Origin: Thermoflavifilum sp.
GTDB lineage: Bacteria; Bacteroidota; Bacteroidia; Chitinophagales; Chitinophagaceae
Reading direction: 5' to 3'
DNA: 64,000 nt
Assembly (NCBI RefSeq): GCF_014961315.1
Contig: NZ_CP063141.1
Location: 186,001 to 250,000, forward strand
Of the stretch, positions 26,804 to 41,941 are shown in pieces. The first letter of the stretch is position 1; every line of letters begins with the position of its first letter. The position numbers and the translations under genes were made by a program. The notes under the pieces were generated by a model. That model was not told the origin of the DNA and searched no databases. It saw nothing but the letters and a program-made list of their open reading frames with translations.

Positions 26804-26840
26804 AGCCTGAAAGATTTGTATGTTACGTGAAAGGAAAAAT

Positions 26841-26935
26841 GGCAAGTGGCTTACATCGCACCGCTGCGACCGCCTACCCTTGCTGCATTCCTGCCCTGGG
26901 GGAGTTCAGCAGGAGCTGGTCGTGTAAGACTTGCC
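26841..26935 (-). ncRNA. ffs: Small signal recognition particle RNA (4.5S type)
   Basis: The minus strand carries the SRP Alu-less helix 8: CCCAGGGCAGGAATGCAGCA contains the conserved asymmetric and symmetric loops bound by Ffh. The ends pair as GGCAAGTCTTACA with TGTAAGCCACTTGCC, closing a single long hairpin of about 95 bases. It is the RNA scaffold for co-translational targeting of membrane proteins. The exact ends are taken from the closing stem. Confidence 0.92.
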
Positions 26936-26940
26936 AGCAG

Positions 26941-26948
26941 CGAAGGTA
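26941..26948 (-). promoter_or_regulatory. -7 box of the SRP RNA gene
   Basis: TACCTTCG on the minus strand differs from TAnnTTTG at one base and ends six bases before the first base of the SRP RNA, exactly where a -7 element should lie. No TTG at the correct distance was found. Confidence 0.5.
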
Positions 26949-27740: not shown

Positions 27741-27797
27741 ATGAAACGGCATGTACATCATCACGCAGCTCAGGTATCTCCGGGGAAGCCGAGATGA
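27741..27797 (+). CDS. hisL: his operon leader peptide (attenuator sensor)
   Basis: An 18-codon open frame starting ATG AAA CGG and ending TGA at 27795-27797. Codons 4 and 6-8 are His (CAT, CAT, CAT, CAC at 27750-27764), four of five consecutive positions. It lies between a strong promoter and a terminator hairpin directly ahead of hisG, which is the textbook layout of a histidine attenuator. When charged tRNA-His is scarce the ribosome should stall on these codons. The peptide itself has no expected function. Confidence 0.88.
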   Translation: MKRHVHHHAAQVSPGKPR

Positions 27798-27857
27798 GGT
27801 GCATGCTGTTTGAAGATATGTGCAAAAGGCTTACCCGGTGCTGGTAAGCCTTTTTTA
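27780..27857 (+). terminator. his attenuator: antiterminator and terminator hairpins
   Basis: Terminator: AAAAGGCTTACC (27824-27835) pairs perfectly with GGTAAGCCTTTT (27843-27854) over a 7-base loop and runs into a T tract. Antiterminator: CCGGGGAAGCC (27780-27790) pairs with GGCTTACCCGG (27828-27838) with one mismatch, disrupting the terminator. A ribosome stalled on the last His codon covers up to about 27779, leaving the antiterminator strand free; a ribosome at the stop codon covers it. Amino-acid shortage therefore allows transcription into hisG. Confidence 0.85.
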
Positions 27858-27872
27858 TTAAATAGAAAAATC

Positions 27873-28739
27873 ATGACGCATTCAGCCAAACTGAAAATTG
27901 CCATTCAAAAATCGGGACGCCTGCACGACGACTCCGTGAAATTATTGCAGGAATGCGGCATTGACCTGCATAACGGATTGAACAAGCTGAAGACCGAAGC
28001 CAGCAATTTCCCGCTGGAAGTGTATTTCCTGCGGGATGATGATATTCCGCAATATGTGGAAGATGAAGTAGCCGATGTAGGCATTGTGGGCGAGAATGTA
28101 ATCCTGGAAAAAGAAAAACAGGTTCAGGTAGTCGAGCAGCTGGGATACGGCAATTGTCGCCTCTCCCTGGCTATTCCCAAAGATCAGGACTACAGAGGCG
28201 TTCATGACCTGCAGGGCAAACGCATTGCCACCAGCTATCCACATTTGCTTACGAAATATCTTGCTGAGCATCAGGTCGAAGCAGAAATCCACGAAATCAG
28301 CGGCTCCGTGGAAATTGCACCCAGCATTGGATTGGCCGATGCTATCTGTGATCTGGTCAGCAGCGGATCTACCCTGTTTATGAATGGACTGCGAGAAGTG
28401 GAGACCATCCTGCATTCGCAGGCCGTACTCATCAGCCACAACCAGCTAAAAGGTCATGCACGCGATTTGCTGGAACAATTGCGCTTTCGCATTCAGGCCG
28501 TAAAAAAAGCCCGGCATAATAAATACATTTTGCTGAATGCACCCAACGATAAACTTCCGGAAATCATCAAATTACTACCCGGGATGAAAAGCCCTACCAT
28601 TCTGCCGTTGGCCGAATCGGGCTGGAGCTCGGTGCATTCTGTAGTGAATGAAAATGATTTCTGGGATATCATCGAAAGCCTGAAAAAGCAAGGCGCTCAG
28701 GGCATTCTGGTGGTGCCCATCGAAAAGATGATCATTTAA
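27873..28739 (+). CDS. hisG: ATP phosphoribosyltransferase (long form)
   Basis: First step of histidine synthesis: ATP plus PRPP gives phosphoribosyl-ATP. 288 residues from the ATG at 27873 (MTHSAKLKIAIQKSGRL); the longer frame would begin inside the attenuator. The catalytic domain includes DVGIVGENVI and the PRPP loop region EIAPSIGLADAICDLVSSGSTL. The extra C-terminal domain (SPTILPLAESGWSSVHSVV) marks the long, HisZ-independent form that is feedback-inhibited by histidine. First structural gene of the operon, 17 bases before hisD. Confidence 0.96.
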   Translation: MTHSAKLKIAIQKSGRLHDDSVKLLQECGIDLHNGLNKLKTEASNFPLEVYFLRDDDIPQYVEDEVADVGIVGENVILEKEKQVQVVEQLGYGNCRLSLAIPKDQDYRGVHDLQGKRIATSYPHLLTKYLAEHQVEAEIHEISGSVEIAPSIGLADAICDLVSSGSTLFMNGLREVETILHSQAVLISHNQLKGHARDLLEQLRFRIQAVKKARHNKYILLNAPNDKLPEIIKLLPGMKSPTILPLAESGWSSVHSVVNENDFWDIIESLKKQGAQGILVVPIEKMII

Positions 28740-28756
28740 AACCTGTTTCAATCGCT

Positions 28757-30067
28757 ATGTGGACATTCATCCGATATCCGGAAAAATCAAGCTGGAACGA
28801 TTTGCTGCAGCGCCCCAACGATGATGCGCCAGAGATTCGCGAGCGGGTAGAAACGATTTTATCTCGGGTTCGCACCGATGGCGATGCAGCTTTGCTGGCG
28901 CTGACAGCCGAACTGGATGGTGTGCAACTCGATAAACTTGCTTATGAAGTGCCTGGACGGCAGAAAATCATACAACAACTGCCCGATCCTTTGCGGGAGG
29001 CTATCGACCTGGCAGTGGCCAACATCCGGCGGTTTCACCAGGCACAGCTTACCGATGAAATAGCAGTAGAAACCATGCCGGGGATCCGTTGCTGGCAAAA
29101 ATCGTTGCCAATCGCTTCTGTTGGATTGTATGTCCCGGGTGGATCAGCACCTTTGTTTTCCACATTGATGATGCTGGCCATTCCTGCACGTATTGCGGGT
29201 TGCAGACAACTGGTGGTATGTTCACCACCTATGAAAGATGGAAGCCTGCATCCGGCGTTGTTGTATGTAGCAAGCCTCTGCGAAATACCGATCATTTATC
29301 GCGTAGGCGGAGCACAGGCTATTGCGGCTATGGCCTGGGGTACGGAAACGATACCACGCGTGGATAAAATTTTCGGACCCGGCAATCGCTATGTTACGCT
29401 GGCCAAGCAACTGTTGCAACAGGAAGGGCTGGCCATCGACATGCCTGCAGGACCTTCGGAAGTGGCTGTACTGGGCGACAGCAGCTGCCCGCCCGAATTT
29501 GCAGCTGCCGATCTGCTTTCTCAGGCCGAACATGGACCTGATAGCCAGGTGCTGCTGGTAAGCACAGACGAGGCCTGGATGAGCGAGGTTGAAAATGCCC
29601 TGCGCAAGCAGCTCTCCAGCTTACCCCGGCAAGCCGTAGCAATCCGCGCGCTCAGCCATAGCAAAGCATGCCTGATGAAAAATGAAGATGAAGCGATTGC
29701 CTTACTGAATGCATATGCACCCGAACACCTGATTCTGGCCTGTCGCCACGCCCGTGCACTGGCCGAACGAATTGAACATGCCGGCTCGGTATTTATTGGC
29801 TATTATGCTCCCGAAAGCGTCGGAGATTATGCTTCGGGCACCAATCATACCCTTCCCACTGCAGGCTTTGCTCGCGCATGGAGTGGTGTGCATGTGGATA
29901 GCTTTCGGAAAAAAATCAGTTTTCAGGAACTTAGTCGCGAAGGCCTTCGGGCCATAGGACCGGCCGTGGAAACCCTGGCGCTTGCAGAAGGTCTGCAGGG
30001 CCATCAACAGGCAGTTGCCATCCGGCTCCGACAGTTATATGCAAGTGATGATGGATTAAAAACATAA
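28757..30067 (+). CDS. hisD: Histidinol dehydrogenase
   Basis: Zinc- and NAD-dependent enzyme that oxidises L-histidinol to L-histidine in two steps. 436 residues. Conserved stretches include LPIASVGLYVPGGSAPLFST, GGAQAIAAMAWGTETIPRVD, GPGNRYVTLAKQ, DMPAGPSEVAVLGD and the zinc/catalytic segment DLLSQAEHGPDSQVLL. The C-terminal YAPEHLILA and GDYASGTNHTLPTAG are also typical. It is 17 bases after hisG and 15 before hisC. Confidence 0.97.
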   Translation: MWTFIRYPEKSSWNDLLQRPNDDAPEIRERVETILSRVRTDGDAALLALTAELDGVQLDKLAYEVPGRQKIIQQLPDPLREAIDLAVANIRRFHQAQLTDEIAVETMPGIRCWQKSLPIASVGLYVPGGSAPLFSTLMMLAIPARIAGCRQLVVCSPPMKDGSLHPALLYVASLCEIPIIYRVGGAQAIAAMAWGTETIPRVDKIFGPGNRYVTLAKQLLQQEGLAIDMPAGPSEVAVLGDSSCPPEFAAADLLSQAEHGPDSQVLLVSTDEAWMSEVENALRKQLSSLPRQAVAIRALSHSKACLMKNEDEAIALLNAYAPEHLILACRHARALAERIEHAGSVFIGYYAPESVGDYASGTNHTLPTAGFARAWSGVHVDSFRKKISFQELSREGLRAIGPAVETLALAEGLQGHQQAVAIRLRQLYASDDGLKT

Positions 30068-30082
30068 AAACATTGCCATACC

Positions 30083-31162
30083 GTGTTTAACCTTCAACGT
30101 CTGATCCGCCCCAACATCCAGCAACTTGTGCCCTACGCTTCAGCACGGGATGAATTTTCCGGCAAGGCACAGGTTTTTCTCGATGCCAATGAAAATGCCT
30201 GGGGTTCACCTCTGGAGAAGCCGTATAACCGTTATCCCGATCCGCTGCAACATGAACTGAAGGCACGCATTGCAAAACTGAAACACATCCCGGAAGAAAA
30301 TATTTTTCTGGGCAATGGCAGCGATGAATGTATTGACCTTACCCTGCGTGCATTCTGCGAACCCGGGCAGGATGAGGTCATCATCTGTCCGCCCACCTAC
30401 GGCATGTATGAAGTATGCGCGCAGATTCAGCACGCTATTATCCGGAACGTCCCCTTATTGCCTGATTTCGGATTAGATGTGCAGGGCATCCTGCAAGCCA
30501 TCCATCCACACACCAAACTCATCATTCTCTGTTCGCCCAATAATCCTACAGGTAATTGCTTTTCCGGGGATGCGATTGAAACCCTGCTGCGCGAATTTGA
30601 TGGTATTGTGGCTATTGACGAAGCTTACATTGACTTTGCCTCCCATCCGGGCTTCCTCAACCGACTCCATGCCTACCCCAACCTCATCATCTGGCAAACT
30701 TTTTCAAAGGCATGGGGGCTCGCCGGACTGCGTGTGGGTATGGCTTTCGCTTCGGCCGACATCATCAGGGTATTCAACAAAATCAAGTACCCTTACAACA
30801 TCAGCCAGCTTACCCAGGAAACGCTCTTGCATGCGCTGGAACGGGTTGAGGATGTGCAGCACTGGAAAGAAATGATTGTTCAACAACGCAATAGCTTAAG
30901 CCAGGCACTGCAACAACTGGAAATCGTAGAAAAGGTCTATCCCAGCGAAGCGAATTTCTTGCTCGTGAAAATCAATCAGGCCCGCAAAGTATATGCTTAC
31001 CTGTTGCAGCAGGGAATTGTCGTGCGCGACCGCAGCCGGGTTATGCTTTGCGAAGACTGCCTGCGCATTACGGTGGGCCGGCCTGAGGAAAACGAAATGC
31101 TGCTCGCCCATTTACATGCCTATCAAACCCTGCAAACCCGTTCACAACCTTCAGCTCATTAA
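30083..31162 (+). CDS. hisC: Histidinol-phosphate aminotransferase
   Basis: PLP transaminase converting imidazole acetol phosphate to histidinol phosphate. 359 residues. It appears to begin with GTG at 30083 (FNLQRLIRPNIQQLVPY follows), the family's usual N-terminus. The PLP lysine is K209 in WQTFSKAWGLAGLRVG; DANENAWGSP, GNGSDECIDL, CSPNNPTGN and AIDEAYIDF are the other signature blocks. It follows hisD by 15 bases. Confidence 0.95.
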   Translation: MFNLQRLIRPNIQQLVPYASARDEFSGKAQVFLDANENAWGSPLEKPYNRYPDPLQHELKARIAKLKHIPEENIFLGNGSDECIDLTLRAFCEPGQDEVIICPPTYGMYEVCAQIQHAIIRNVPLLPDFGLDVQGILQAIHPHTKLIILCSPNNPTGNCFSGDAIETLLREFDGIVAIDEAYIDFASHPGFLNRLHAYPNLIIWQTFSKAWGLAGLRVGMAFASADIIRVFNKIKYPYNISQLTQETLLHALERVEDVQHWKEMIVQQRNSLSQALQQLEIVEKVYPSEANFLLVKINQARKVYAYLLQQGIVVRDRSRVMLCEDCLRITVGRPEENEMLLAHLHAYQTLQTRSQPSAH

Positions 31163-31183
31163 GCTTTCAAAACTGTAGTGTGT

Positions 31184-32326
31184 ATGCAACCCCGATTGTT
31201 GTTTATCGATCGCGATGGCACGTTGATTCAAGAACCGCCCGACCACCAGATCGACGATTTTTCCAAGCTTAGCTTCGTACCCGGTATGCTGCAATACCTG
31301 CCACGAATTGCCCGTGAACTGGATTTTCTACTCGTGATGGTAACCAATCAGGATGGACTGGGTACCGACAGGTTTCCGGAAGAACGCTTCTGGCCCATCC
31401 AGCATTTTCTGATCCGAACACTGGAAAATGAAGGTGTACATTTCACCGATATCCTGATCGATCGCTCTCTTCCCGAACAAAAATTACCCACCCGCAAACC
31501 CGGCACCGGCATGGTGACGAAATACCTGGAATCCGGCAAATATGATCTGAAGCATTCTTTTGTGATCGGCGACCGGATCACCGATGTACAATTTGCGCAC
31601 AATATGGGTTGTCAGGCTATCTGGCTCAATCGTGGAGATGAGTTAGGCGCAGGGGAATTATCATCAGTAGAAAGGGAGAAGCTGGCTCAAGGTGTTGCCC
31701 TCGAAACCACAAGCTGGAAAAAAATTTATGAATGGCTTAAACTGGGGCAACGAACTGCAGAGCGCCAACGGATAACAAATGAAACAGATGTGTATGTGCG
31801 GTTAAATCTGGACGGCAGTGGTAAAGCCGATATTGCCACCGGACTGGGCTTTTTTGATCACATGTTGCATCAGCTGGCTCGCCACGGTGGTATCGACCTC
31901 ACCGTGCATGTCCGTGGCGACCTGCATGTGGATGAACATCATACCATTGAAGATACGGCTATTGCACTGGGTGAAGCGATTTATGAAGCGCTAGGCAATA
32001 AGCTGGGTATTGAACGATATGGTTTCTGCCTGCCGATGGACGATGCACTGGCACAGGTAGCCGTTGATCTGGGCGGCAGAAGCTGGTTGGTATGGCAGGT
32101 TACGTTTCATCGGGAAAAAATCGGCGATGTGCCTACCGAAATGTTTATGCACTTCTTCAAATCCCTTTCTGATGCCGCCAGATGCAATGTGCATATTCAG
32201 GCCAGCGGCGAAAATGAACATCATAAAATTGAAGCCATCTTTAAAGCTTTTGCAAAAGCGCTGAAAATGGCCGTCAGACGCGATGCCGATCAACCGCAAC
32301 TGCCTACTACCAAGGGCGTGTTGTAA
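31184..32326 (+). CDS. hisB: Bifunctional histidinol-phosphatase / imidazoleglycerol-phosphate dehydratase
   Basis: 380 residues, a fusion of two pathway steps. Residues 1 to about 165 are a HAD phosphatase with nucleophile D9 and acid D11 in FIDRDGTL, a cap region with RKPGTGM, and [12 protein letters not shown]. The rest is an IGP dehydratase with manganese-binding motifs [14 protein letters not shown] and [15 protein letters not shown] and a C-terminal [12 protein letters not shown] use the ATG at 31184; a GTG six bases upstream is also open. It is the last his gene before the inserted trp block. Confidence 0.95.
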
Positions 32327-32333
32327 AAAATTT

Positions 32334-32364
32334 TTGTATTTTTTGAAATTGTGCTGCATATTTG
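32334..32364 (+). promoter_or_regulatory. Possible internal promoter before the trp leader
   Basis: TTG (32334-32336), 20 bases, then CATATTTG (32357-32364), one base off TAnnTTTG. It ends seven bases before the leader ATG. If used, the trp block has its own start as well as read-through from hisB. Confidence 0.35.
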
Positions 32365-32371
32365 CAGCATC

Positions 32372-32434
32372 ATGAACTTCAAGTATGTACATATCAGCTG
32401 GTGGTGGCACGGCGTTAGCTGCAAAGCGCTGTGA
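32372..32434 (+). CDS. trpL: trp leader peptide (attenuator sensor) inside the his operon
   Basis: A 20-codon open frame from ATG at 32372 to TGA at 32432-32434. Codons 10-12 are TGG TGG TGG (32399-32407), and codon 13 is CAC (His, 32408-32410); a CAT His codon is at position 7. It is followed by a strong terminator hairpin and then trpE. Three consecutive Trp codons in so short a frame, at this position, identify a tryptophan attenuator. The adjacent His codon is noteworthy because the last four his genes lie downstream. Confidence 0.88.
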   Translation: MNFKYVHISWWWHGVSCKAL

Positions 32435-32510
32435 TTCAGCACCTGTTGTGTATATGCATGAAGTTACACGAAAATGAAGGCTCGCTGGACACAGCGGGCC
32501 TTCTTCGTTT
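32427..32510 (+). terminator. trp attenuator: terminator with competing upstream strand
   Basis: Terminator: GAAGGCTCGCTG (32476-32487) pairs with CAGCGGGCCTTC (32492-32503) across GACA, twelve pairs including one T-G wobble, then TTCGTTT. A competing partner is CGCTGTG (32427-32433), perfectly complementary to CACAGCG (32490-32496), which covers the loop and part of the 3' arm. That strand overlaps the leader's stop codon, so a ribosome that finishes the peptide would mask it and one stalled at the Trp codons would not. The terminator is clear; the antiterminator pairing is short and less certain. Confidence 0.75.
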
Positions 32511-32543
32511 CAGGGCATGATGAAAATTAAACCACATAAGGAT

Positions 32544-33953
32544 ATGAAACCTGTTCAGATTCGTACTCGCTCCAAGCGCTTGCTGGCCGATGTTTTTACG
32601 CCGGTAGGCATTTACCTGCGCATCCGCGATCGCTATCCGGGCAGCATATTACTGGAAAGCACGGATTATCATGCAGCCGAAAACAGTTTTTCTTTCATCT
32701 GCATGCAGCCCATTGCAGGCATGGAAATGCGATCGTTGCATGAATTTGAGTTTAAATATCCGCTGGAAGCTCCCGAACGTCATAGCGTGAAGGATCCACA
32801 GCAGATGATGCAACAATTCCAGGCATTTCTACAACGTTTTCAATTCAGCGGCCAGTCGCCCGTGCCAGTTACCGAGGGCATGTTCGGTTATACGGCTTAC
32901 GACGCCGTACAGTTCTTTGAACATATTCAGCTGCATGCGCCGGCCGATGATTCCATGATTCCCTTCATGCGTTACCGGTTTTACCAGTATGTGATTGCCA
33001 TCAACCATTTTAAAGATGAGTTGTACCTGTGCGAAAATCGAATTGAAGGCCTTCCTTCCGAATTCGAACAAATCGAAACTTTAATCCGCCGAAAAGATGT
33101 ACCCCTGTATCCCTTTCAGCGAAAAGGAACGGAACAGGCCGATATGCACGATGAAGATTACATGCAGATGGTGGAAAAAGGTATAGCGCATTGTCATCGC
33201 GGCGATGTGTTCCAGATCGTGTTATCGCGTAGCTTTTCGCAATCATTTACCGGCGATGAATTCAATGTTTATCGGCATTTGCGTTCCATTAATCCATCGC
33301 CCTACCTGTTTTATTTTGATTATGGAAACTACCGGCTCATGGGCTCTTCGCCGGAATCCCAGTTAATCATCCGCAATGGTAAAGCCACCATTCATCCCAT
33401 AGCCGGCACTTTCCGGCGTACCGGCGACGACGAAACCGATGAAATGCTGGCGCGTAAGCTGGAAGCCGACCCTAAAGAAAATGCAGAGCATGTGATGCTG
33501 GTTGATCTGGCACGCAATGACCTGAGCCGCTATGCAAAGGATGTGCAGGTAACCTCGTATCGGAAAGTACAATATTACTCGCATGTCATCCATCTGGTAA
33601 GCGAAGTAACGGGTCGTATCAACGGCCAGACGAATCCATTTGCCGTACTGGCCGCCACCTTCCCCGCCGGCACCTTATCCGGTGCACCGAAATACCGGGC
33701 CATGCAACTCATTGACCAGTATGAACGTTCCGCACGTAGTTATTATGGCGGATGCATTGGCTTTGTGGGCTTTAACGGTGAATTCAACCATGCGATTATG
33801 ATTCGCACATTGTTGAGCAAGGGTAATACCCTTTATTATCGCGGAGGTGCGGGCATTGTGGCTCAATCAAATCCAGCAGCGGAAGTACAGGAAGTTCATA
33901 ATAAACTGAATGCATTACGGATGGCTATCGAAATGGCCGAAAATACCTATTAA
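32544..33953 (+). CDS. trpE: Anthranilate synthase component I
   Basis: Converts chorismate and ammonia to anthranilate. About 469 residues from the ATG at 32544 (MKPVQIRTRSKRLLADVFTP, the usual family start); in-frame ATGs at 32517 and 32520 would add nine or eight residues. LLESTDYHAAENSFS near the N-terminus is the tryptophan feedback-site region. The chorismate-binding core shows INPSPYLFYFDYG, MGSSPESQL, HPIAGTFRRTGDD, MLVDLARNDLSR and FPAGTLSGAPKYRAM. First structural gene of the trp block, directly after the attenuator. Confidence 0.96.
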   Translation: MKPVQIRTRSKRLLADVFTPVGIYLRIRDRYPGSILLESTDYHAAENSFSFICMQPIAGMEMRSLHEFEFKYPLEAPERHSVKDPQQMMQQFQAFLQRFQFSGQSPVPVTEGMFGYTAYDAVQFFEHIQLHAPADDSMIPFMRYRFYQYVIAINHFKDELYLCENRIEGLPSEFEQIETLIRRKDVPLYPFQRKGTEQADMHDEDYMQMVEKGIAHCHRGDVFQIVLSRSFSQSFTGDEFNVYRHLRSINPSPYLFYFDYGNYRLMGSSPESQLIIRNGKATIHPIAGTFRRTGDDETDEMLARKLEADPKENAEHVMLVDLARNDLSRYAKDVQVTSYRKVQYYSHVIHLVSEVTGRINGQTNPFAVLAATFPAGTLSGAPKYRAMQLIDQYERSARSYYGGCIGFVGFNGEFNHAIMIRTLLSKGNTLYYRGGAGIVAQSNPAAEVQEVHNKLNALRMAIEMAENTY

Positions 33954-33979
33954 TTCACATTTATTCACACAACGAGTAT

Positions 33980-34549
33980 ATGCGTATTCTGGTGTTCGAC
34001 AATTACGATTCATTTACCTACAACCTGGTGCACATGGTGCGCAAGTTGAGCTCCGCACCGGTGGACGTATTCCGGAATGATGAAATTCCGTTAGAAAAAA
34101 TCGCTGCCTATGATAAAATCATTTTATCGCCCGGACCGGGCATCCCGGAAGAGGCGGGCTTGCTGCTTCCACTGATTCGTACGTATGCTTCATCTAAATC
34201 TATCTTAGGCGTATGCCTGGGACATCAAGCAATTGGAGAAGCTTTTGGTGGAAAACTCATCAACCTCAGTAAAGTTTATCACGGGGTGGCCACACCTATT
34301 CATATCCTGAATCATGAGGTTCCCATATTTCGCCAGTTACCCGATATGATTCAGGCCGGTCGTTATCATTCCTGGGTTGTAGACGATACTATGCTGCCCG
34401 ATTGCCTCGAAATCACCGCACGCGATGAAGAACAATACATCATGGGATTGCGTCATAAACAATTTGATGTAACGGGCGTGCAATTTCATCCGGAAAGTGT
34501 GCTGACACCTGAAGGAGAAAAAATGATGCTCAACTGGCTGAATGATTAA
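33980..34549 (+). CDS. trpG: Anthranilate synthase component II (glutamine amidotransferase)
   Basis: Supplies ammonia from glutamine to TrpE. 189 residues of a class I amidotransferase: N-terminal LVFDNYDSFTYNL, oxyanion SPGPGIPEEAG, nucleophile Cys in GVCLGHQAIGEAFGG, and catalytic His-Glu in VQFHPESVLTPEG. Stand-alone, not fused to TrpD. It starts 26 bases after trpE. In some bacteria this subunit is shared with folate synthesis (PabA), which may apply here. Confidence 0.95.
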   Translation: MRILVFDNYDSFTYNLVHMVRKLSSAPVDVFRNDEIPLEKIAAYDKIILSPGPGIPEEAGLLLPLIRTYASSKSILGVCLGHQAIGEAFGGKLINLSKVYHGVATPIHILNHEVPIFRQLPDMIQAGRYHSWVVDDTMLPDCLEITARDEEQYIMGLRHKQFDVTGVQFHPESVLTPEGEKMMLNWLND

Positions 34550-34588
34550 CGAAATATCACCTGATGTTTCCTTAAAAATGTTTTTAAA

Positions 34589-35587
34589 ATGAAACAGATT
34601 TTGCAATACTTATTTGACCACAAAACCCTCGATAAAGCCACAGCCAAAGAAATCCTGATGAATATCTCAAAGGGGATATACAACGAAAGCGAATTAGCGG
34701 CTTTTATGACCGTATTTTTGATGCGTAGCATCACGGTAGAAGAACTGGCTGGTTTTCGGGAAGCCTTGCTGGAACTGTGTTTGCGGGTTGACCTGGATGG
34801 TACACCCGTACTCGATATTGTGGGCACAGGCGGGGATGGTAAAAATACATTTAACATTTCCACACTTTCCTGCTTTCTGGTTGCAGGCGCAGGACAGAAA
34901 GTGGCCAAACACGGCAATTATGGTGTATCGTCAATCACGGGTGCCTCCAATGTAATGGAAGCCCTGGGATATAAGCTCAAAAACAATGTGGATGCGCTTA
35001 AACGGGAGCTCGATAAAGCCAACATCTGTTTCCTACATGCACCTTTGTTTCATCCTGCTCTGAAAAATGTAGCAAACGTACGGAAACAGCTGGGTGTACG
35101 CACGTTTTTCAATTTGCTCGGCCCGTTGGTGAATCCGGCCCTGCCGGCTTATCAATTTATCGGCGTTTACAACCTGGAGCTTGCCCGTACCTATCACTAC
35201 CTGTATCAGCAAACCGATAAACGTTATGCCATCATCCACAGCCTGGATGGTTATGATGAAATTTCCCTGACGGGCGATACCATGGTCATCACCCGCGATG
35301 GTCAACAATTATACACGCCTGAGGCATTAGGGAAACGTGCAGTACATGCCATCGATCTCTACGGTGGCGGATCTGTGGATGAATCCGTGAAAATGTTTGT
35401 AAAAATTCTCAAAGGCGAGGGAAGCTGGGCACAACATGCGGTGGTACTGGCCAATGCAGCCATGGGACTATATTGTTGCGGTGCTTATGCAAATTATGAA
35501 GATTGTTATCAGGCTGCCGTAGAATCACTGGAAAGCGGCGCCGGCTATCGCGCCCTCCAGACCTTGCTTGACATGCAAAAAAATTGA
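34589..35587 (+). CDS. trpD: Anthranilate phosphoribosyltransferase
   Basis: Transfers the phosphoribosyl group of PRPP to anthranilate. 332 residues. The PRPP-binding motif GTGGDGKNTFNIST and the anthranilate site VAKHGNYGVSSITGASNVME are intact, followed by FLHAPLFHPALKNV and TFFNLLGPLVNP. It is 39 bases after trpG; trpC begins 20 bases later. An alternative upstream TTG for trpC would overlap the trpD stop. Confidence 0.95.
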   Translation: MKQILQYLFDHKTLDKATAKEILMNISKGIYNESELAAFMTVFLMRSITVEELAGFREALLELCLRVDLDGTPVLDIVGTGGDGKNTFNISTLSCFLVAGAGQKVAKHGNYGVSSITGASNVMEALGYKLKNNVDALKRELDKANICFLHAPLFHPALKNVANVRKQLGVRTFFNLLGPLVNPALPAYQFIGVYNLELARTYHYLYQQTDKRYAIIHSLDGYDEISLTGDTMVITRDGQQLYTPEALGKRAVHAIDLYGGGSVDESVKMFVKILKGEGSWAQHAVVLANAAMGLYCCGAYANYEDCYQAAVESLESGAGYRALQTLLDMQKN

Positions 35588-35607
35588 TTCTGTTTAACTT
35601 GCAAACG

Positions 35608-36417
35608 ATGACATTTATTCTGGATCAGATTATCGCTCACAAACGCCGGGAACTGGCCGTGAAAAAGCAAGCCCTTCCGCTGGAGGTATTGCAACAGATG
35701 CCCGCCTGCACACGTCCCTGCTATTCCTTGAAACAGGCGCTCTTGCAGCCTGCCAGCAGTGGTATTATCGCCGAACACAAGCGTAAATCTCCTTCAAAAG
35801 GATATTTCGCATCAGCCCTGCCCCTGGAACAGATTGTGGCCGGTTATGCACAGTACGGCGCCGCTGCGATGAGCATCCTTACCGATATGACATTTTTTGG
35901 TGGCGCTTCAGAAGACTTGCTGGTGGCGCGTGCACAGACCTCCATTCCCCTGCTGCGTAAGGATTTTATTATTGATGCCTATCAGGTATATGAAGCCAGA
36001 GCCATGGGCGCGGATGTCATATTACTCATTGCCGAATGTCTGGAAAAGCATGAAATCCAGTCCCTATCGGCTCTTGCGCATGAACTGGGCATGGAAGTGC
36101 TCATGGAAGTGCATAGTCGTGAACAGCTCGACAAGCTTTCTTCACATATCGATCTGGTAGGCATCAACAATCGCGACCTGCGAACATTTGAAGTTCATCT
36201 CGATCGATCGTTTGAGCTTGTGCGTGAGATTTCGCCGGCCATTCCGGTTGTTGCAGAAAGCGGTATTCATCATCCGCAAATTATTGCCGCCCTCCGCGAG
36301 GCAGGGTGCAAGGGTTTCCTGATCGGCGAACGTTTCATGCATCAACCCGACCCGGTAAGCGCTTTTCGGGAATTCATGCAACAACTTTCACAAAACCCAA
36401 CACATGCACAGGCATAA
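35608..36417 (+). CDS. trpC: Indole-3-glycerol phosphate synthase
   Basis: Ring-closing decarboxylase of the tryptophan pathway, a TIM barrel of 269 residues from the ATG at 35608 (MTFILDQIIAHKRRELAV, the usual start). Key segments are IIAEHKRKSPSKG with the catalytic lysine, LTDMTFFGGASEDL, PLLRKDFIIDAYQVYEARA, VGINNRDLRTFEV and VAESGIHHP. It is a separate protein, not fused to TrpF, and its end overlaps trpF by 14 bases. Confidence 0.95.
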   Translation: MTFILDQIIAHKRRELAVKKQALPLEVLQQMPACTRPCYSLKQALLQPASSGIIAEHKRKSPSKGYFASALPLEQIVAGYAQYGAAAMSILTDMTFFGGASEDLLVARAQTSIPLLRKDFIIDAYQVYEARAMGADVILLIAECLEKHEIQSLSALAHELGMEVLMEVHSREQLDKLSSHIDLVGINNRDLRTFEVHLDRSFELVREISPAIPVVAESGIHHPQIIAALREAGCKGFLIGERFMHQPDPVSAFREFMQQLSQNPTHAQA

Positions 36418-37051
36418 GCTTCATATCAAAGTATGTGGTTTAACCCGGCTCGACGAACTTCCCCGGCTGGAGGCCATGGGAGTAGATTTCGCAGGAATGA
36501 TCTTCTATCCACCCTCTCCACGCTACATCGCCAGTGTGCCACAAACAGCTCCTACGCCATCTTACCAGGGTCGCCTGCAAAAGGTGGGCGTATTCGTAAA
36601 TGCCCCGGAAGCATGGATTGAATGGGCGGTGAAGCATTACGACCTGCAGGTTATTCAGCTGCACGGAGACGAATCGCCAGCCTATTGCGCACGGTTGCGT
36701 GAAAAGGGACTGAACATCATCAAAACATTTCCTGTAGCCGATGATCAGTTTCCCGACACCCGACCCTACGAAACAAGTTGTGATTATTTCTTATTTGATA
36801 CGGCTTCTATACAAAAAGGAGGTACAGGAAAACGTTTCAACTGGCAGATGCTCCATGCCTATCAGGGCAATATTCCTTTTTTCCTGAGTGGTGGCATTGG
36901 TCCTGAACACGTGCCAGAAATCCTTTCCCTGAGCCATCCTCAATTGTTTGCCGTGGATATCAACAGCCGGTTTGAGATTGCACCTGGTATTAAAAACTTA
37001 GCACAAATCAAACAGTTCATATGTCAATTGAATACCGTGTTGGAGGCATAG
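36404..37051 (+). CDS. trpF: Phosphoribosylanthranilate isomerase
   Basis: Amadori rearrangement of phosphoribosylanthranilate. 215 residues, TIM barrel. The catalytic Cys lies in [10 protein letters not shown] and the catalytic Asp in [30 protein letters not shown] and [13 protein letters not shown] are the phosphate-binding end. Its start overlaps trpC by 14 bases and its end overlaps the trpB frame by 31 bases, so translation of the three is probably coupled. Confidence 0.94.
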
Positions 37052-38289
37052 CACCTTCTGTATTACGACTGGCACAGCCCGGTCAGTATCAGGTAAACGA
37101 AAAGGGCTACTACGGCCAGTTTGGCGGGGCCTTTATCCCCGAGATGCTCTATCGCAACGTTTCGGAGCTCCGGGAAAGATATCTGGATATCATGAACGCT
37201 CCTGATTTTCAGGAAGAATTCAATCGCTTGCTCCGCGATTATGTGGGCAGGCCCTCTCCGCTGTATTTTGCGCGTCGCCTTTCCGAAAAATATCAGACAC
37301 AGATTTTTCTAAAACGGGAAGACCTGAACCATACGGGTGCTCATAAGATTAATAACACCATCGGTCAGATTTTGCTGGCCCGACGGTTAGGGAAAAAACG
37401 CATCATTGCCGAAACTGGAGCCGGGCAACACGGCGTGGCCACCGCTACCGTATGCGCCCTCATGGGTATGGAATGCGTGGTGTACATGGGAGAGGTGGAT
37501 ATGCAACGCCAGGCCCCTAACGTAGCCCGTATGCGCATGCTCGGAGCAAAAGTGGTGCCCGCCATGAGTGGAAGCCGCACCCTGAAAGACGCTACCAATG
37601 AGGCTATCCGCGACTGGGTAAATCATCCCGAAGACACGCATTATATCATTGGCTCGGTAGTAGGTCCACACCCCTATCCGGATATGGTTGCACGCTTTCA
37701 ATCTGTGATTAGCGAAGAAATCAAGCAACAGCTGAAGACCCAGACCGGGCATGAATTGCCCACACATGTCGTGGCCTGTGTGGGCGGAGGTAGCAACGCC
37801 GCCGGCGCTTTTTATCATTTTTTAGATCATATATCTGTGCAGCTGATAGGCGTGGAAGCCGCCGGTAAAGGATTGACAAGCGGTTACACCGCTGCCACCC
37901 TTGCCCTCGGCCGTCCGGGCGTCATCCACGGCAGCAAAACCCTGCTCATGCAAACCGAAGATGGACAAATCGTTGAGCCCCATTCTATCTCAGCCGGACT
38001 CGACTATCCCGGTGTGGGACCGCTGCATGCTTACCTGTACACGACCGGCCGGGCGATGTACCTGCACGCTACCGACCAGGAAGCACTCGACGCCGCATTT
38101 GAATTGACCAGACTCGAAGGTATTATACCCGCGCTGGAAAGTGCCCACGCTCTGGCCAAACTGAAAGACCTGCACCTGAAACCCGAACACGTGGTGGTGG
38201 TGTGCCTCAGTGGTAGAGGCGATAAAGATATGGACACCTATTTGCGCTTTCTGCCAGCTGAAAGCACTACCGAATCTACTGATGCTTAA
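37021..38289 (+). CDS. trpB: Tryptophan synthase beta chain
   Basis: Joins indole and serine to give tryptophan with PLP. 422 residues. The PLP lysine is in [18 protein letters not shown], and [38 protein letters not shown] and [14 protein letters not shown] are intact, so this is the canonical TrpB1. The first ~25 residues before [18 protein letters not shown] are an extension beyond the usual start, caused by beginning at the ATG at 37021 within trpF; no alternative ATG lies closer to the conserved part. It is 24 bases before trpA. Confidence 0.95.
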
Positions 38290-38313
38290 ATACCTATTTG
38301 AATTGATAAAACC

Positions 38314-39108
38314 ATGAACCGTATCGATCGCTTATTTGCAGAAAAAACGGAAAAGATTCTTACGATTTATTTCACTGCCGGATTTCCCCGGCTGCACGAT
38401 ACCAAACGCATATTGCTGGCACTGCAACAGGCGGGCGCCGACATGGTAGAAATTGGTATTCCTTTTTCTGATCCGCTGGCCGATGGTCCGGTAATCCAGC
38501 AAAGCAGTAAACAGGCCCTGGATAATGGCATGTCGCTCCGCTTGTTGTTTGAACAATTGCACGACGTCCGTCGTGATATTCAGTTGCCACTGGTGTTATT
38601 TGGCTATCTGAACGTAGTCCTGCAATTCGGATTGGAACGTTTTTTTGAAAAATGCGTGGAAACAGGTATCGACGGGTTGATTCTACCCGATCTGCCGCTC
38701 GATGAATTCAAGCAGGATATGGAGCCGTTGTGCAAATCCACAAATATTCATTTTAGCTTTCTCATTACGCCGGAAACCTCCGATATGCGTATTCGCCAGC
38801 TCGATGAAGCCAGCAGTGGCTTTCTGTATGTCGTTTCTTCGTCTTCCACCACAGGTAAGAAAAAGGATCTCACAAACTTGCAACCCTATTTTCAACGCAT
38901 TCAGGCGATGCACTTGCAGAATCCCTTTCTGGTTGGTTTCGGCATACACGACCATCAAAGCTTTCTGCAGGCCTGTGAGCACAGCCGGGGTGCGGTAATT
39001 GGCAGCGCCTACATCCGCCTGCTGCAGCAGGCAACGGATATCGAACAAGCTACTACAGCCTTTGTGCAACATATTGTATCGGGTATTCCCGTGATTTCTA
39101 CACCTTAA
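38314..39108 (+). CDS. trpA: Tryptophan synthase alpha chain
   Basis: Cleaves indole-3-glycerol phosphate and channels indole to TrpB. 264 residues. The catalytic Glu and Asp lie in VEIGIPFSDPLADGPVIQ and the substrate loop in GLILPDLPLDE; FLYVVSSSSTTGKK and FLVGFGIHDHQS form the phosphate site. It is the last trp gene; hisH begins only ten bases after its stop, which ties the trp block to the second his block. Confidence 0.95.
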   Translation: MNRIDRLFAEKTEKILTIYFTAGFPRLHDTKRILLALQQAGADMVEIGIPFSDPLADGPVIQQSSKQALDNGMSLRLLFEQLHDVRRDIQLPLVLFGYLNVVLQFGLERFFEKCVETGIDGLILPDLPLDEFKQDMEPLCKSTNIHFSFLITPETSDMRIRQLDEASSGFLYVVSSSSTTGKKKDLTNLQPYFQRIQAMHLQNPFLVGFGIHDHQSFLQACEHSRGAVIGSAYIRLLQQATDIEQATTAFVQHIVSGIPVISTP

Positions 39109-39118
39109 GCACCTGCAA

Positions 39119-39709
39119 ATGGATATCGTGGTCATCCGTTATCATGCCGGAAATATTCAATCGGTGTTGTTCGCTCTGGAAAGAATGGGCTATCGTGCTT
39201 GTGTGACTGATGATGCCAGACTGATTCGCTCGGCCGATCGGGTGATTTTCCCCGGGGTTGGCGAGGCCAGCTCCGCTATGGCCTATCTCAAAGCTCGAAA
39301 ATTAGATGAAGTGATTCGCTCGCTCACACAGCCCGTACTGGGCATTTGCCTGGGTATGCAGCTGCTGGCCCGTTATTCAGAAGAAAATAACACCGCATGT
39401 CTGGGTATTTTTCCGGAAGAAGTGAAAAAATTTTCTCCGACAGCAGGACTTAAAGTTCCGCAAATCGGCTGGAACCAGATCACCGATCTGCGTTCTCCCC
39501 TTTTTGATGGTGTAAAAAACGGAGCCTATGTATATTTCGTGCACAGCTACTACGTGCCCTGTTGTGCCTACACCATCGCCACGGCGTCGTATGGCATATC
39601 CTACAGTGCGGCAATCCATCGCGATCAATTTTATGCGGTGCAATTTCATCCCGAAAAATCGGCACAAACCGGGGAACGCATCTTGAAAAATTTTATTCAC
39701 CTGAGTTAA
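39119..39709 (+). CDS. hisH: Imidazole glycerol phosphate synthase, glutaminase subunit
   Basis: Releases ammonia from glutamine for HisF. 196 residues of a class I amidotransferase: VVIRYHAGNIQSVLFALERM at the start, IFPGVGEASSAM at the oxyanion strand, nucleophile Cys in LGICLGMQLLARYSE, and catalytic His-Glu in AVQFHPEKSAQTG. It starts ten bases after trpA and ends 12 bases before hisA, resuming the histidine pathway after the trp insertion. Confidence 0.95.
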   Translation: MDIVVIRYHAGNIQSVLFALERMGYRACVTDDARLIRSADRVIFPGVGEASSAMAYLKARKLDEVIRSLTQPVLGICLGMQLLARYSEENNTACLGIFPEEVKKFSPTAGLKVPQIGWNQITDLRSPLFDGVKNGAYVYFVHSYYVPCCAYTIATASYGISYSAAIHRDQFYAVQFHPEKSAQTGERILKNFIHLS

Positions 39710-39721
39710 GCGCATGCTTAT

Positions 39722-40483
39722 ATGGCGATAGAACTGATTCCTGCTATTGACATTATCGATGGGCGTTGTGTGAGGCTCACGCAGGGCGATTATCAGCTGC
39801 AAACGATCTACGATGCCGATCCGCTGGATATTGCCCGATCGTTTGAAGCCGCAGGCTTGCGCCGGCTACATCTGGTGGATCTGGACGGGGCCAGGCAACG
39901 CAAGGTAAAGAACTGGGATGTGCTGGCTCGCATCGTCCAACATACCTCGCTGGTTGTCGATTTTGGAGGGGGCATCACCACAACCGACGAAGTAAAACGG
40001 GCACTGCAAACCGGAGCAAGCCTGGTCGTGGTTGGAAGCATAGCCGTCAGACAGCCGGAATTATTCCAGCAATGGCTTCAGGAATTCGGACCCGACAAAT
40101 TTTTGCTGGGAGCCGATGTCAGAAATAATTGCATCACCATACATGGCTGGCAACAAACCACTTCATTAGCGGTCATTGAATTTCTACAAAAGCAGCTTCA
40201 GATGGGCGTACGACAGGTGTTTTGCACCGATGTGGCTCGCGACGGCATGCTGCAGGGCCCTGCCTTTGAACTCTATGCCAGCATTCTAAAAGCTCTGCCC
40301 GACATTCACCTGATTGCCAGCGGAGGCATACAATCCATCGACGACATCACCCGGCTGGAACGTATGGGCCTGAAGGGCGTGATTGTGGGCAAAGCCCTGT
40401 ATGAAGGGAAAATATCCCTGCAGGAATGGATCCAGCTAAGCAAAGTGAAAGATCCTGCAACTCGACAACAACATGATGCATGA
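39722..40483 (+). CDS. hisA: ProFAR isomerase
   Basis: Isomerises 5'-ProFAR to PRFAR. 253 residues, half-barrel duplicated TIM fold. The N-terminal catalytic Asp is in PAIDIIDGRCVRLTQGDY and the second in CTDVARDGMLQGPAFELY; DFGGGITTTDEV and IASGGIQSIDDI bind the phosphates. It follows hisH by 12 bases and precedes hisF by 30. Confidence 0.95.
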   Translation: MAIELIPAIDIIDGRCVRLTQGDYQLQTIYDADPLDIARSFEAAGLRRLHLVDLDGARQRKVKNWDVLARIVQHTSLVVDFGGGITTTDEVKRALQTGASLVVVGSIAVRQPELFQQWLQEFGPDKFLLGADVRNNCITIHGWQQTTSLAVIEFLQKQLQMGVRQVFCTDVARDGMLQGPAFELYASILKALPDIHLIASGGIQSIDDITRLERMGLKGVIVGKALYEGKISLQEWIQLSKVKDPATRQQHDA

Positions 40484-40513
40484 TTTTACAACATCGAAAA
40501 AATATACACCTGC

Positions 40514-41269
40514 ATGCTCACCAAACGTATCATTCCCTGCCTGGATATTAAAGACGGACGCACGGTGAAAGGTGTTTATTTTGAACATATTCGCGATGCC
40601 GGCGATCCGGTGGAACTGGGTGCCCGCTATGCAGCCGAGGGTGCCGACGAACTGGTATTTCTCGATATCACCGCCACAAACGAGCGACGAAAAACCCTGG
40701 CCGGACTGGTCAGGGAAATCGCCCACCACATTGCCATCCCTTTCACGGTGGGTGGCGGCATCACCACGGCTGAAGATGTGCATGTATTGCTCAATGCCGG
40801 AGCCGACAAGATTTCTGTGAATACATCCGCCTATCGCAATCCGGTGCTGATCGACGAACTGGCCCGACTGTTCGGCTCACAATGCGTGGTAGTAGCTATC
40901 GACACGAAATTTGAACAGAACGACTGGTGGGTATATCTGAATGGTGGACGCATCCGCACCCAGACCCGTGCGGTCGACTGGGCCAGAGAAGTGGTGAACC
41001 GCGGCGCCGGCGAAATCTTGCTTACTTCCATGAGCCACGACGGTGCCAAACAGGGATTTGCACTCGACATCACCCGCGAACTGGCTACTACACTGCCCGT
41101 GCCTATCATCGCCTCCGGTGGTGCCGGTACCATGCAACATTTTCTCGACGTCTTTCAACAGGCTCATGCCGATGCAGCCCTCGCCGCCAGCATCTTTCAC
41201 TTTGGCGAGATCAGCATTCCTGAACTAAAAGCTTTTTTAAAACAACATCATATTCCCATCAGAGATTGA
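40514..41269 (+). CDS. hisF: Imidazole glycerol phosphate synthase, cyclase subunit
   Basis: Uses ammonia from HisH to close the imidazole ring, releasing AICAR. 251 residues. Catalytic Asp residues are in [14 protein letters not shown] and [29 protein letters not shown] and [17 protein letters not shown] bind the phosphates. It is paralogous to the adjacent hisA. It precedes hisIE by 21 bases. Confidence 0.96.
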
Positions 41270-41290
41270 GTTTTTGCTTACCTTTATGCT

Positions 41291-41941
41291 ATGAATGAAA
41301 CGGCTTCTCAACCGCTTATAGCCATGCATGATTTTACCGAAACGGATTTGCAGGTCGACTTCGAGAAATTTCCAGACGGACTGGTGCCGGCTATCATCCA
41401 GGATGCACACACGCGTTGCATCCTGATGCTGGGCTATATGAATCGCGAAGCCCTCGAAAGAACCATAAAAGATAAACGTGTAACCTTTTATAGCCGTTCT
41501 AAACAACGCCTGTGGATGAAAGGCGAAGAAAGTGGTCATCTGCTGATGGTGGAAGATATCCGTACGGATTGTGATCGGGATGCCATCCTCATCAAAGCCC
41601 GGCCACTGGGAGCAGTCTGCCATACAGGCGCCGACACCTGCTTCAATGAACTTAATGTATCAGACAATTTTCTGGAACATCTCGAAAATGTGATCCTGGA
41701 CCGTAAACATCGCCGACCAGAAAATTCCTATACCGCACGGCTATTTGCACAGGGCATCAACCGCATCGCCCAAAAACTCGGTGAAGAAGCCGTGGAAATG
41801 GTCATTGAAGCCAAAGACGATAATGAAGAACTGTTCCTGAATGAAGCAGCCGATTTGCTATATCACTATCTGGTGCTGCTTACCGCCAAAGGATATGTAC
41901 TGAACGATGTGATAGAGGTATTGAAAAAACGACACCACTGA
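41291..41941 (+). CDS. hisI: Bifunctional PR-AMP cyclohydrolase / PR-ATP pyrophosphatase
   Basis: 216 residues joining steps 2 and 3 of the pathway (HisIE). The N-terminal cyclohydrolase domain has MLGYMNREALERTI, VTFYSRSKQRLWMKGEESGH and the zinc residues in DCDRDAILI and GAVCHTGADTCF. The C-terminal MazG-like pyrophosphatase has YTARLFAQGINRIAQKLGEE and EAADLLYHYLVLL. It is the last gene of the composite operon; no clear terminator follows before the next gene 56 bases on. Confidence 0.95.
   Translation: MNETASQPLIAMHDFTETDLQVDFEKFPDGLVPAIIQDAHTRCILMLGYMNREALERTIKDKRVTFYSRSKQRLWMKGEESGHLLMVEDIRTDCDRDAILIKARPLGAVCHTGADTCFNELNVSDNFLEHLENVILDRKHRRPENSYTARLFAQGINRIAQKLGEEAVEMVIEAKDDNEELFLNEAADLLYHYLVLLTAKGYVLNDVIEVLKKRHH

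What the first reader, a model, noticed from the sequence alone, without database searches (positions are those of the whole stretch)
32372..32510. A trp attenuator in the middle of a his operon, with a His codon next to the Trp codons
The leader frame has TGG TGG TGG followed directly by CAC, and a second His codon upstream. The terminator is a 12-pair hairpin. Because hisH-A-F-IE lie downstream, plentiful tryptophan would cut their expression even when histidine is scarce. A ribosome stalled on the CAC at 32408-32410 would still leave the competing strand at 32427-32433 uncovered, so shortage of histidine might also open the terminator. That would make it a two-amino-acid sensor solving the polarity problem. 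The codons and hairpin are seen; the dual sensing is inference, as His codons can occur by chance.
Basis: partly seen in the sequence, partly recalled or inferred. Interest (0 to 1): 0.75.

Follow-up and report, generated by a model that had tools for sequence, protein, structure and literature searches.

The report
Trp attenuator with conserved His codon
In a family of soil and water bacteria the tryptophan genes sit inside, or just ahead of, histidine genes, and the short RNA switch in front of them reads tryptophan codons followed by a histidine codon; that histidine codon is kept far more faithfully when histidine genes lie downstream, which suggests one switch that can be opened by shortage of either amino acid.

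Summary
A 20-codon leader (32372-32434, MNFKYVHISWWWHGVSCKAL) precedes a 12-pair terminator (32476-32503) between hisB and trpE in a hisGDCB-trpEGDCFBA-hisHAFIE cluster of a Chitinophagaceae genome (probably Thermoflavifilum). It is a ribosome-mediated trp attenuator.

I tested dual sensing on 219 distinct related trp loci. With hisH downstream of trpA, 131 of 135 leaders have His at the codon just after the Trp run (C/T freely exchanged at the third base). In stand-alone trp loci 13 of 33 do. A tree-based test favours layout-dependent loss of His (LR 12-30 depending on sampling; 0 of 200 simulations reached the family-only value). His there is lost several times more slowly than other non-Trp residues. 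It is about the last codon at which a stalled ribosome leaves most of the antiterminator free, as with Arg12 of E. coli trpL.

Against: His also occurs in some stand-alone leaders, inside and outside the family, and neighbouring residues show weaker layout effects. No expression data exist. Dual Trp/His sensing is the best-supported reading (about 0.6): a new variant of classical multivalent attenuation. The nested gene order was already published; I found no account of its regulation.

The parts
32333..32364 (+). putative internal trp promoter, Bacteroidota type (TTTG 32333-32336, 20 nt, CATATTTG 32357-32364), ending 7 nt before the leader ATG
   Evidence: only 9 such + strand hits in 64 kb; a -7 box with at most 1 mismatch near the leader ATG in 153 of 165 loci against about 43 in shuffles, 98 of them 7-8 nt before the ATG
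32372..32434 (+). leader peptide frame MNFKYVHISWWWHGVSCKAL
   Evidence: homologous leader in front of trpE in about 200 loci
32390..32392 (+). upstream His codon (CAT), conserved only in the genus ([HY][VI]HI[SG]WWWH)
32399..32407 (+). three Trp control codons
   Evidence: last Trp codon without a change in 134 his-layout loci
32408..32410 (+). His codon (CAC) directly after the Trp codons: proposed second control codon
32427..32440 (+). antiterminator 5' strand (CGCUGUG-a-UUCAGC), overlapping the leader stop codon
32476..32503 (+). intrinsic terminator hairpin, 12 pairs (its apex 32484-32496 is the antiterminator 3' strand)
32517..39108 (+). trpE-trpG-trpD-trpC-trpF-trpB-trpA
39119..41941 (+). 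hisH-hisA-hisF-hisIE, no promoter-like site found at 38890-39125; must be reached through the trp attenuator
27873..32326 (+). hisG-hisD-hisC-hisB upstream of the trp block
27741..27797 (+). his leader MKRHVHHHAAQVSPGKPR, His-rich, without Trp
   Evidence: 43 of 52 searched loci with hisG have such a leader, none with Trp
27824..27856 (+). his attenuator terminator (AAAAGGCTTACC ... GGTAAGCCTTTTTT)
   Evidence: read from the sequence

Best explanation
This is a ribosome-mediated transcription attenuator with two kinds of control codons. A ribosome translating the leader waits at one of three Trp codons when charged tRNA-Trp is short, or at the following His codon when charged tRNA-His is short. 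In either case its front edge stays short of the strand at 32427-32440, which then pairs with the apex of the terminator (32484-32496), and transcription goes on into trpEGDCFBA and hisHAFIE. When both amino acids are plentiful the ribosome runs to the stop codon at 32432-32434, covers that strand, and the terminator forms. The His codon keeps hisHAFIE expressible when His is scarce and Trp is plentiful. Shown: the leader, terminator, competing strand, their conservation, and the dependence of the His codon on his genes downstream. Inferred: that His shortage actually raises read-through.
For: (1) His at the codon after the Trp run: 131/135 loci with hisH downstream, 13/33 stand-alone. (2) Tree test: H-loss depends on layout, LR 29.7 (168 tips), 18.3 without outgroups, 0 of 200 parametric simulations as high; 12.3 (p 0.002) in the least favourable sampling; loss rate 2.5-3.3 against about 0.08. 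(3) In his-layout loci this codon is the most conserved non-Trp position (4.06 of 4.32 bits); CA never changes, the third base changes 11 times, only 2 of them pyrimidine to purine, so the amino acid is conserved. (4) Of the 4 his-layout exceptions, 3 have hisH alone downstream. (5) Geometry: with His in the A site 78-86% of the antiterminator energy stays available, falling to about half within two to three codons. (6) Precedent: in E. coli trpL stalling on Arg12, the codon after the two Trp codons, also prevents attenuation (PMC1183508). (7) Extra His just before the Trp run in 31/135 his-layout, 0/33 stand-alone. (8) The his leader at the operon head lacks Trp codons, in line with the trp genes having their own conserved internal promoter while hisHAFIE have none detected.
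Against: No expression data. His also follows the Trp run in 13 of 33 stand-alone leaders in the sample (21 of 44 with split operons and GTG-started leaders counted) and in at least 8 stand-alone leaders outside the family, against 3 Gln and 2 Leu found there. Position +3 (Asn) also shows a layout effect (LR 11.1 without outgroups), so stand-alone leaders drift more generally; among leaders of the long form the His effect is weak (LR 7.0, p 0.03). A single His codon may be a weak sensor. The window's T tract is poor.
Confidence: 0.6

Rival explanations
1. A trp-only attenuator. The codon after the Trp run is an old CAY triplet, kept by descent and because UGGCA can pair with a downstream UGCCA in the 1:2 hairpin; stand-alone leaders evolve faster for other reasons, so the layout association is indirect.
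For: UGGCAC:GUGCCA pairing is present in many Chitinophaga relatives, and CA is kept in most stand-alone leaders with Gln as well. WWWH occurs in stand-alone leaders of several other families. Asn at +3 also differs by layout.
Against: A UGCC partner is absent in most his-layout loci, and in 15 of the CAT loci the third base would face U; C and U exchange freely but purines are nearly absent. In stand-alone loci His and Gln are 13:11, in his-layout loci 131:4. The three hisH-only exceptions fit the functional reading.
Confidence: 0.3
2. The His codon slows the ribosome or shapes the RNA to tune the trp response (for example positioning of a pausing polymerase) without sensing histidine.
For: It lies at the edge of the control window, where small timing effects would matter.
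Against: Does not predict dependence on his genes downstream.
Confidence: 0.07
3. Not a working attenuator: a decayed or chance leader with a terminator that simply ends hisGDCB transcripts.
For: Weak T tract in the window.
Against: Leader, terminator and competing strand are conserved in about 200 loci, including three genus mates.
Confidence: 0.03

Closest known systems
E. coli trpL attenuator (ribosome-mediated; WWR control region)
   Same: Short leader peptide with consecutive Trp codons, competing RNA helices, terminator before trpE; the codon right after the Trp codons (Arg12 there) also gives antitermination when the ribosome stalls on it (PMC1183508).
   Different: Three Trp codons; the next codon is His and its conservation follows the presence of his genes downstream; the leader lies inside a his operon behind a Bacteroidota-type promoter; no match to any Rfam leader family at gathering threshold.
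Multivalent attenuators (ilvGMEDA: Leu/Val/Ile; thrABC: Thr/Ile), from general knowledge
   Same: One leader with control codons for more than one amino acid linked to the downstream genes.
   Different: There the amino acids share a pathway; here Trp and His come from separate pathways joined only by operon fusion.
Nested his-trp cluster of Thermoflavifilum thermophilum and Filimonas lacunae (PMC8305728)
   Same: Same kind of layout, described there as a his operon interrupted by trp genes.
   Different: That paper states that no expression data exist for the cluster, and a term search of it showed no attenuator for it.
his attenuator (His-rich leader before hisG)
   Same: The same operon carries one at its head, 27741-27856.
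   Different: It has only His control codons; no Trp in 43 such leaders.

Membership tests
Ribosome-mediated trp attenuator | Short frame with tandem Trp codons upstream of trp genes | tested here: met
Ribosome-mediated trp attenuator | Intrinsic terminator between leader and first trp gene | tested here: met
   T tract weak in the window, good in most relatives
Ribosome-mediated trp attenuator | Antiterminator helix exclusive with the terminator, free when the ribosome stalls on Trp, covered at the stop codon | tested here: met
   (computed energies only)
Ribosome-mediated trp attenuator | Read-through rises under Trp limitation | not testable with these tools
   needs expression data
Multivalent attenuator | Control codons for each amino acid whose genes lie downstream, at stalling positions that free the antiterminator | tested here: met
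   based on conservation and geometry
Multivalent attenuator | Second amino acid's control codon absent where its genes are absent | tested here: inconclusive
   lost in 20 of 33 stand-alone loci, kept in 13; also kept in at least 8 of 13 outside the family
Multivalent attenuator | Read-through rises under limitation of the second amino acid | not testable with these tools
   needs expression data
Rfam leader families (such as the Trp leader) | Covariance-model match | tested here: not met
   no leader family above gathering threshold in the window

The most novel reading that the evidence does not exclude
A single attenuator senses two amino acids of unrelated pathways, and selection keeps the second control codon according to which genes lie downstream: regulation repaired by one codon after operon fusion.
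Probability: 0.55. Interest if true: 0.72.

Novelty: new variant of a known kind. Interest (0 to 1): 0.62.

Why it matters
Putting one amino-acid operon inside another creates a polarity problem: the inner switch shuts off outer genes. If a single codon next to the Trp codons solves it, this is a clear, testable case of regulation adapting to gene order, replicated across a large family with natural losses (stand-alone trp operons) as controls. It would also put a dual Trp/His attenuator into the Bacteroidota, where the literature I could search describes little attenuation in detail.

Tried and rejected
Full nesting (hisB upstream) as the driver of the His codon: rejected, loci with only hisHAFI downstream keep it nearly equally. 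Base-pairing of the third codon base as the reason for C/T only: not supported outside part of the Chitinophaga clade. A sigma-70 E. coli-type promoter before the leader: none found; a Bacteroidota-type site fits instead. A promoter just before hisH: none found by the same scan. Trp codons in the his leader (reciprocal dual sensing): none in 43 leaders.

Full report
What is there. The window comes from a 2.83 Mb genome. By gene order and by its relatives it belongs to the Chitinophagaceae; a his operon interrupted by trp genes is published for Thermoflavifilum thermophilum (PMC8305728), so the genus is probably Thermoflavifilum. The genes are hisG, hisD, hisC, hisB, then trpE, G, D, C, F, B, A, then hisH, A, F, IE. 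Between hisB (stop 32326) and trpE (start 32517) lies a leader frame, 32372-32434, MNFKYVHISWWWHGVSCKAL, and a 12-pair terminator, 32476-32503. The hairpin is far more stable than shuffles (z -6.9). No Rfam leader family matches.

How the RNA can switch. The strand 32427-32433 (CGCUGUG) pairs with 32490-32496, and 32435-32440 (UUCAGC) with 32484-32489, with A434 bulged. This helix takes the terminator apex. The same architecture with changed bases is found in close relatives, for example CGCUGUGUA-g-CAGUG on CGCUG-UACACAGCG in Chitinophaga. In more distant members of the family the leader end (CGGGGCUUGUAA and the like) pairs with the terminator's 5' arm in the classical 2:3 manner. Removing the part covered by a ribosome, the mean share of the best antiterminator energy left is 0.85 with the codon after the Trp run in the A site, 0.70 one codon later and 0.52 two codons later (front edge taken as 13 nt). 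The Trp codons and the next codon therefore fill the effective control window. In E. coli trpL the codon in the same place, Arg12, is documented as a control codon (PMC1183508).

I collected 241 trp loci, 219 with distinct trpE, and classed each by what follows trpA. With hisH downstream the residue after the Trp run is His in 130 of 135, plus one with WWGH; four have Gln. In stand-alone loci it is His in 13 of 33, otherwise Gln 11, Leu 6, Ser, Pro, Asn. Three of the four Gln cases with hisH (L074, L170, L176, an Arachidicoccus group) have hisH but not hisA, hisF or hisI behind it. Whether hisB lies upstream does not matter.

Correction for relatedness. On a tree of seven concatenated Trp proteins a model in which gain and loss of His depend on layout beats an independent one: LR 32.9 with 4 extra parameters, 29.7 with only the His rates depending on layout (168 tips); 18.3 without outgroups. 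In 200 data sets simulated without dependence the largest value was 10.5. Counting split trp operons and GTG-started leaders as well lowers it to 12.3 (p 0.002) in the least favourable variant; counting hisH-only loci as lacking the his block gives 20.2. Loss rates are 2.5-3.3 in stand-alone loci and about 0.08-0.10 with his genes downstream.

Is it the codon or the nucleotides? In his-layout loci the first two bases never change, the third changes 11 times, of which 2 are pyrimidine to purine; CAT 100, CAC 30, CAA 4. Other non-Trp codons change 23-58 times on the same tree. A UGCC partner that could pair with UGGCA is absent in most loci, and its third-base partner often mismatches. His is the most conserved non-Trp residue, 4.06 bits, and its loss rate is several times (about 3 to 37) lower than those of the control positions in the same loci. 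An extra His directly before the Trp run occurs in 31 of 135 his-layout and 0 of 33 stand-alone leaders (Fisher p 0.0008, not corrected for the tree; tree-corrected p 0.06 without outgroups, 0.39 with them). In the window's genus the leaders have two or three His codons, [HY][VI]HI[SG]WWWH.

Why only this leader would need two signals. A Bacteroidota-type promoter (TTTG, 20 nt, CATATTTG) ends 7 nt before the leader ATG, and the -7 box is conserved at that place in most relatives. So trp genes need not be reached through the his attenuator. hisHAFIE follow trpA closely (10 nt in the window; median gap 24 nt in 135 loci) and no promoter-like site is found before hisH; they must be reached through the trp attenuator. 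In line with this, the His-rich leader before hisG (27741-27797) has no Trp codon, nor has any of 43 such leaders.

What speaks against it. The His codon is not confined to loci with his genes downstream. In other Bacteroidia families, where only coordinates could be obtained, five of seven loci with hisH 6-8 kb downstream have TGGTGGTGGCAY in front of trpE (no such match near trpE in the other two), but so do at least eight stand-alone loci, beside three with Gln and two with Leu (lists truncated). Asn at +3 shows a smaller layout effect as well, and when only leaders of the long form are compared the His effect is weak (LR 7.0).

Verdict. A real trp attenuator with a His codon in control position, very probably under selection for the amino acid where his genes follow. 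Dual Trp/His sensing is the best explanation (0.6), untested by experiment. The gene order is known (PMC8305728); the searches made here found no account of its attenuator, though the library holds only open-licence papers, and earlier comparative work on attenuators that included Bacteroidetes (Vitreschak and colleagues, 2004, from memory) could not be read.

Noticed in passing
27741-27856: A His-rich leader (MKRHVHHHAAQVSPGKPR) and terminator before hisG: a classical his attenuator at the head of the same cluster, conserved in most relatives as H.HHHH with no Trp.
   Followed up: partly
26836-26943 (- strand): Small SRP RNA (Rfam RF04183, 96.9 bits).
   Followed up: no
32357-32372: The -7 box of the putative internal promoter ends 7-8 nt before the leader ATG here and in about 98 relatives, so the leader mRNA would begin within a few bases of its start codon (nearly leaderless).
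   Followed up: partly
L071, L174, L177: trp-hisHAFI clusters in which no Trp-codon leader was found upstream of trpE; these lineages may have lost the attenuator.
   Followed up: no
L074, L170, L176: Arachidicoccus-type loci: trp genes followed by hisH alone (no hisA/F/I), and the leader has WWWQ instead of WWWH.
   Followed up: yes
L047: hisGDCB directly upstream of trp genes but no hisH within 4.4 kb downstream of trpA; His codon still present.
   Followed up: no
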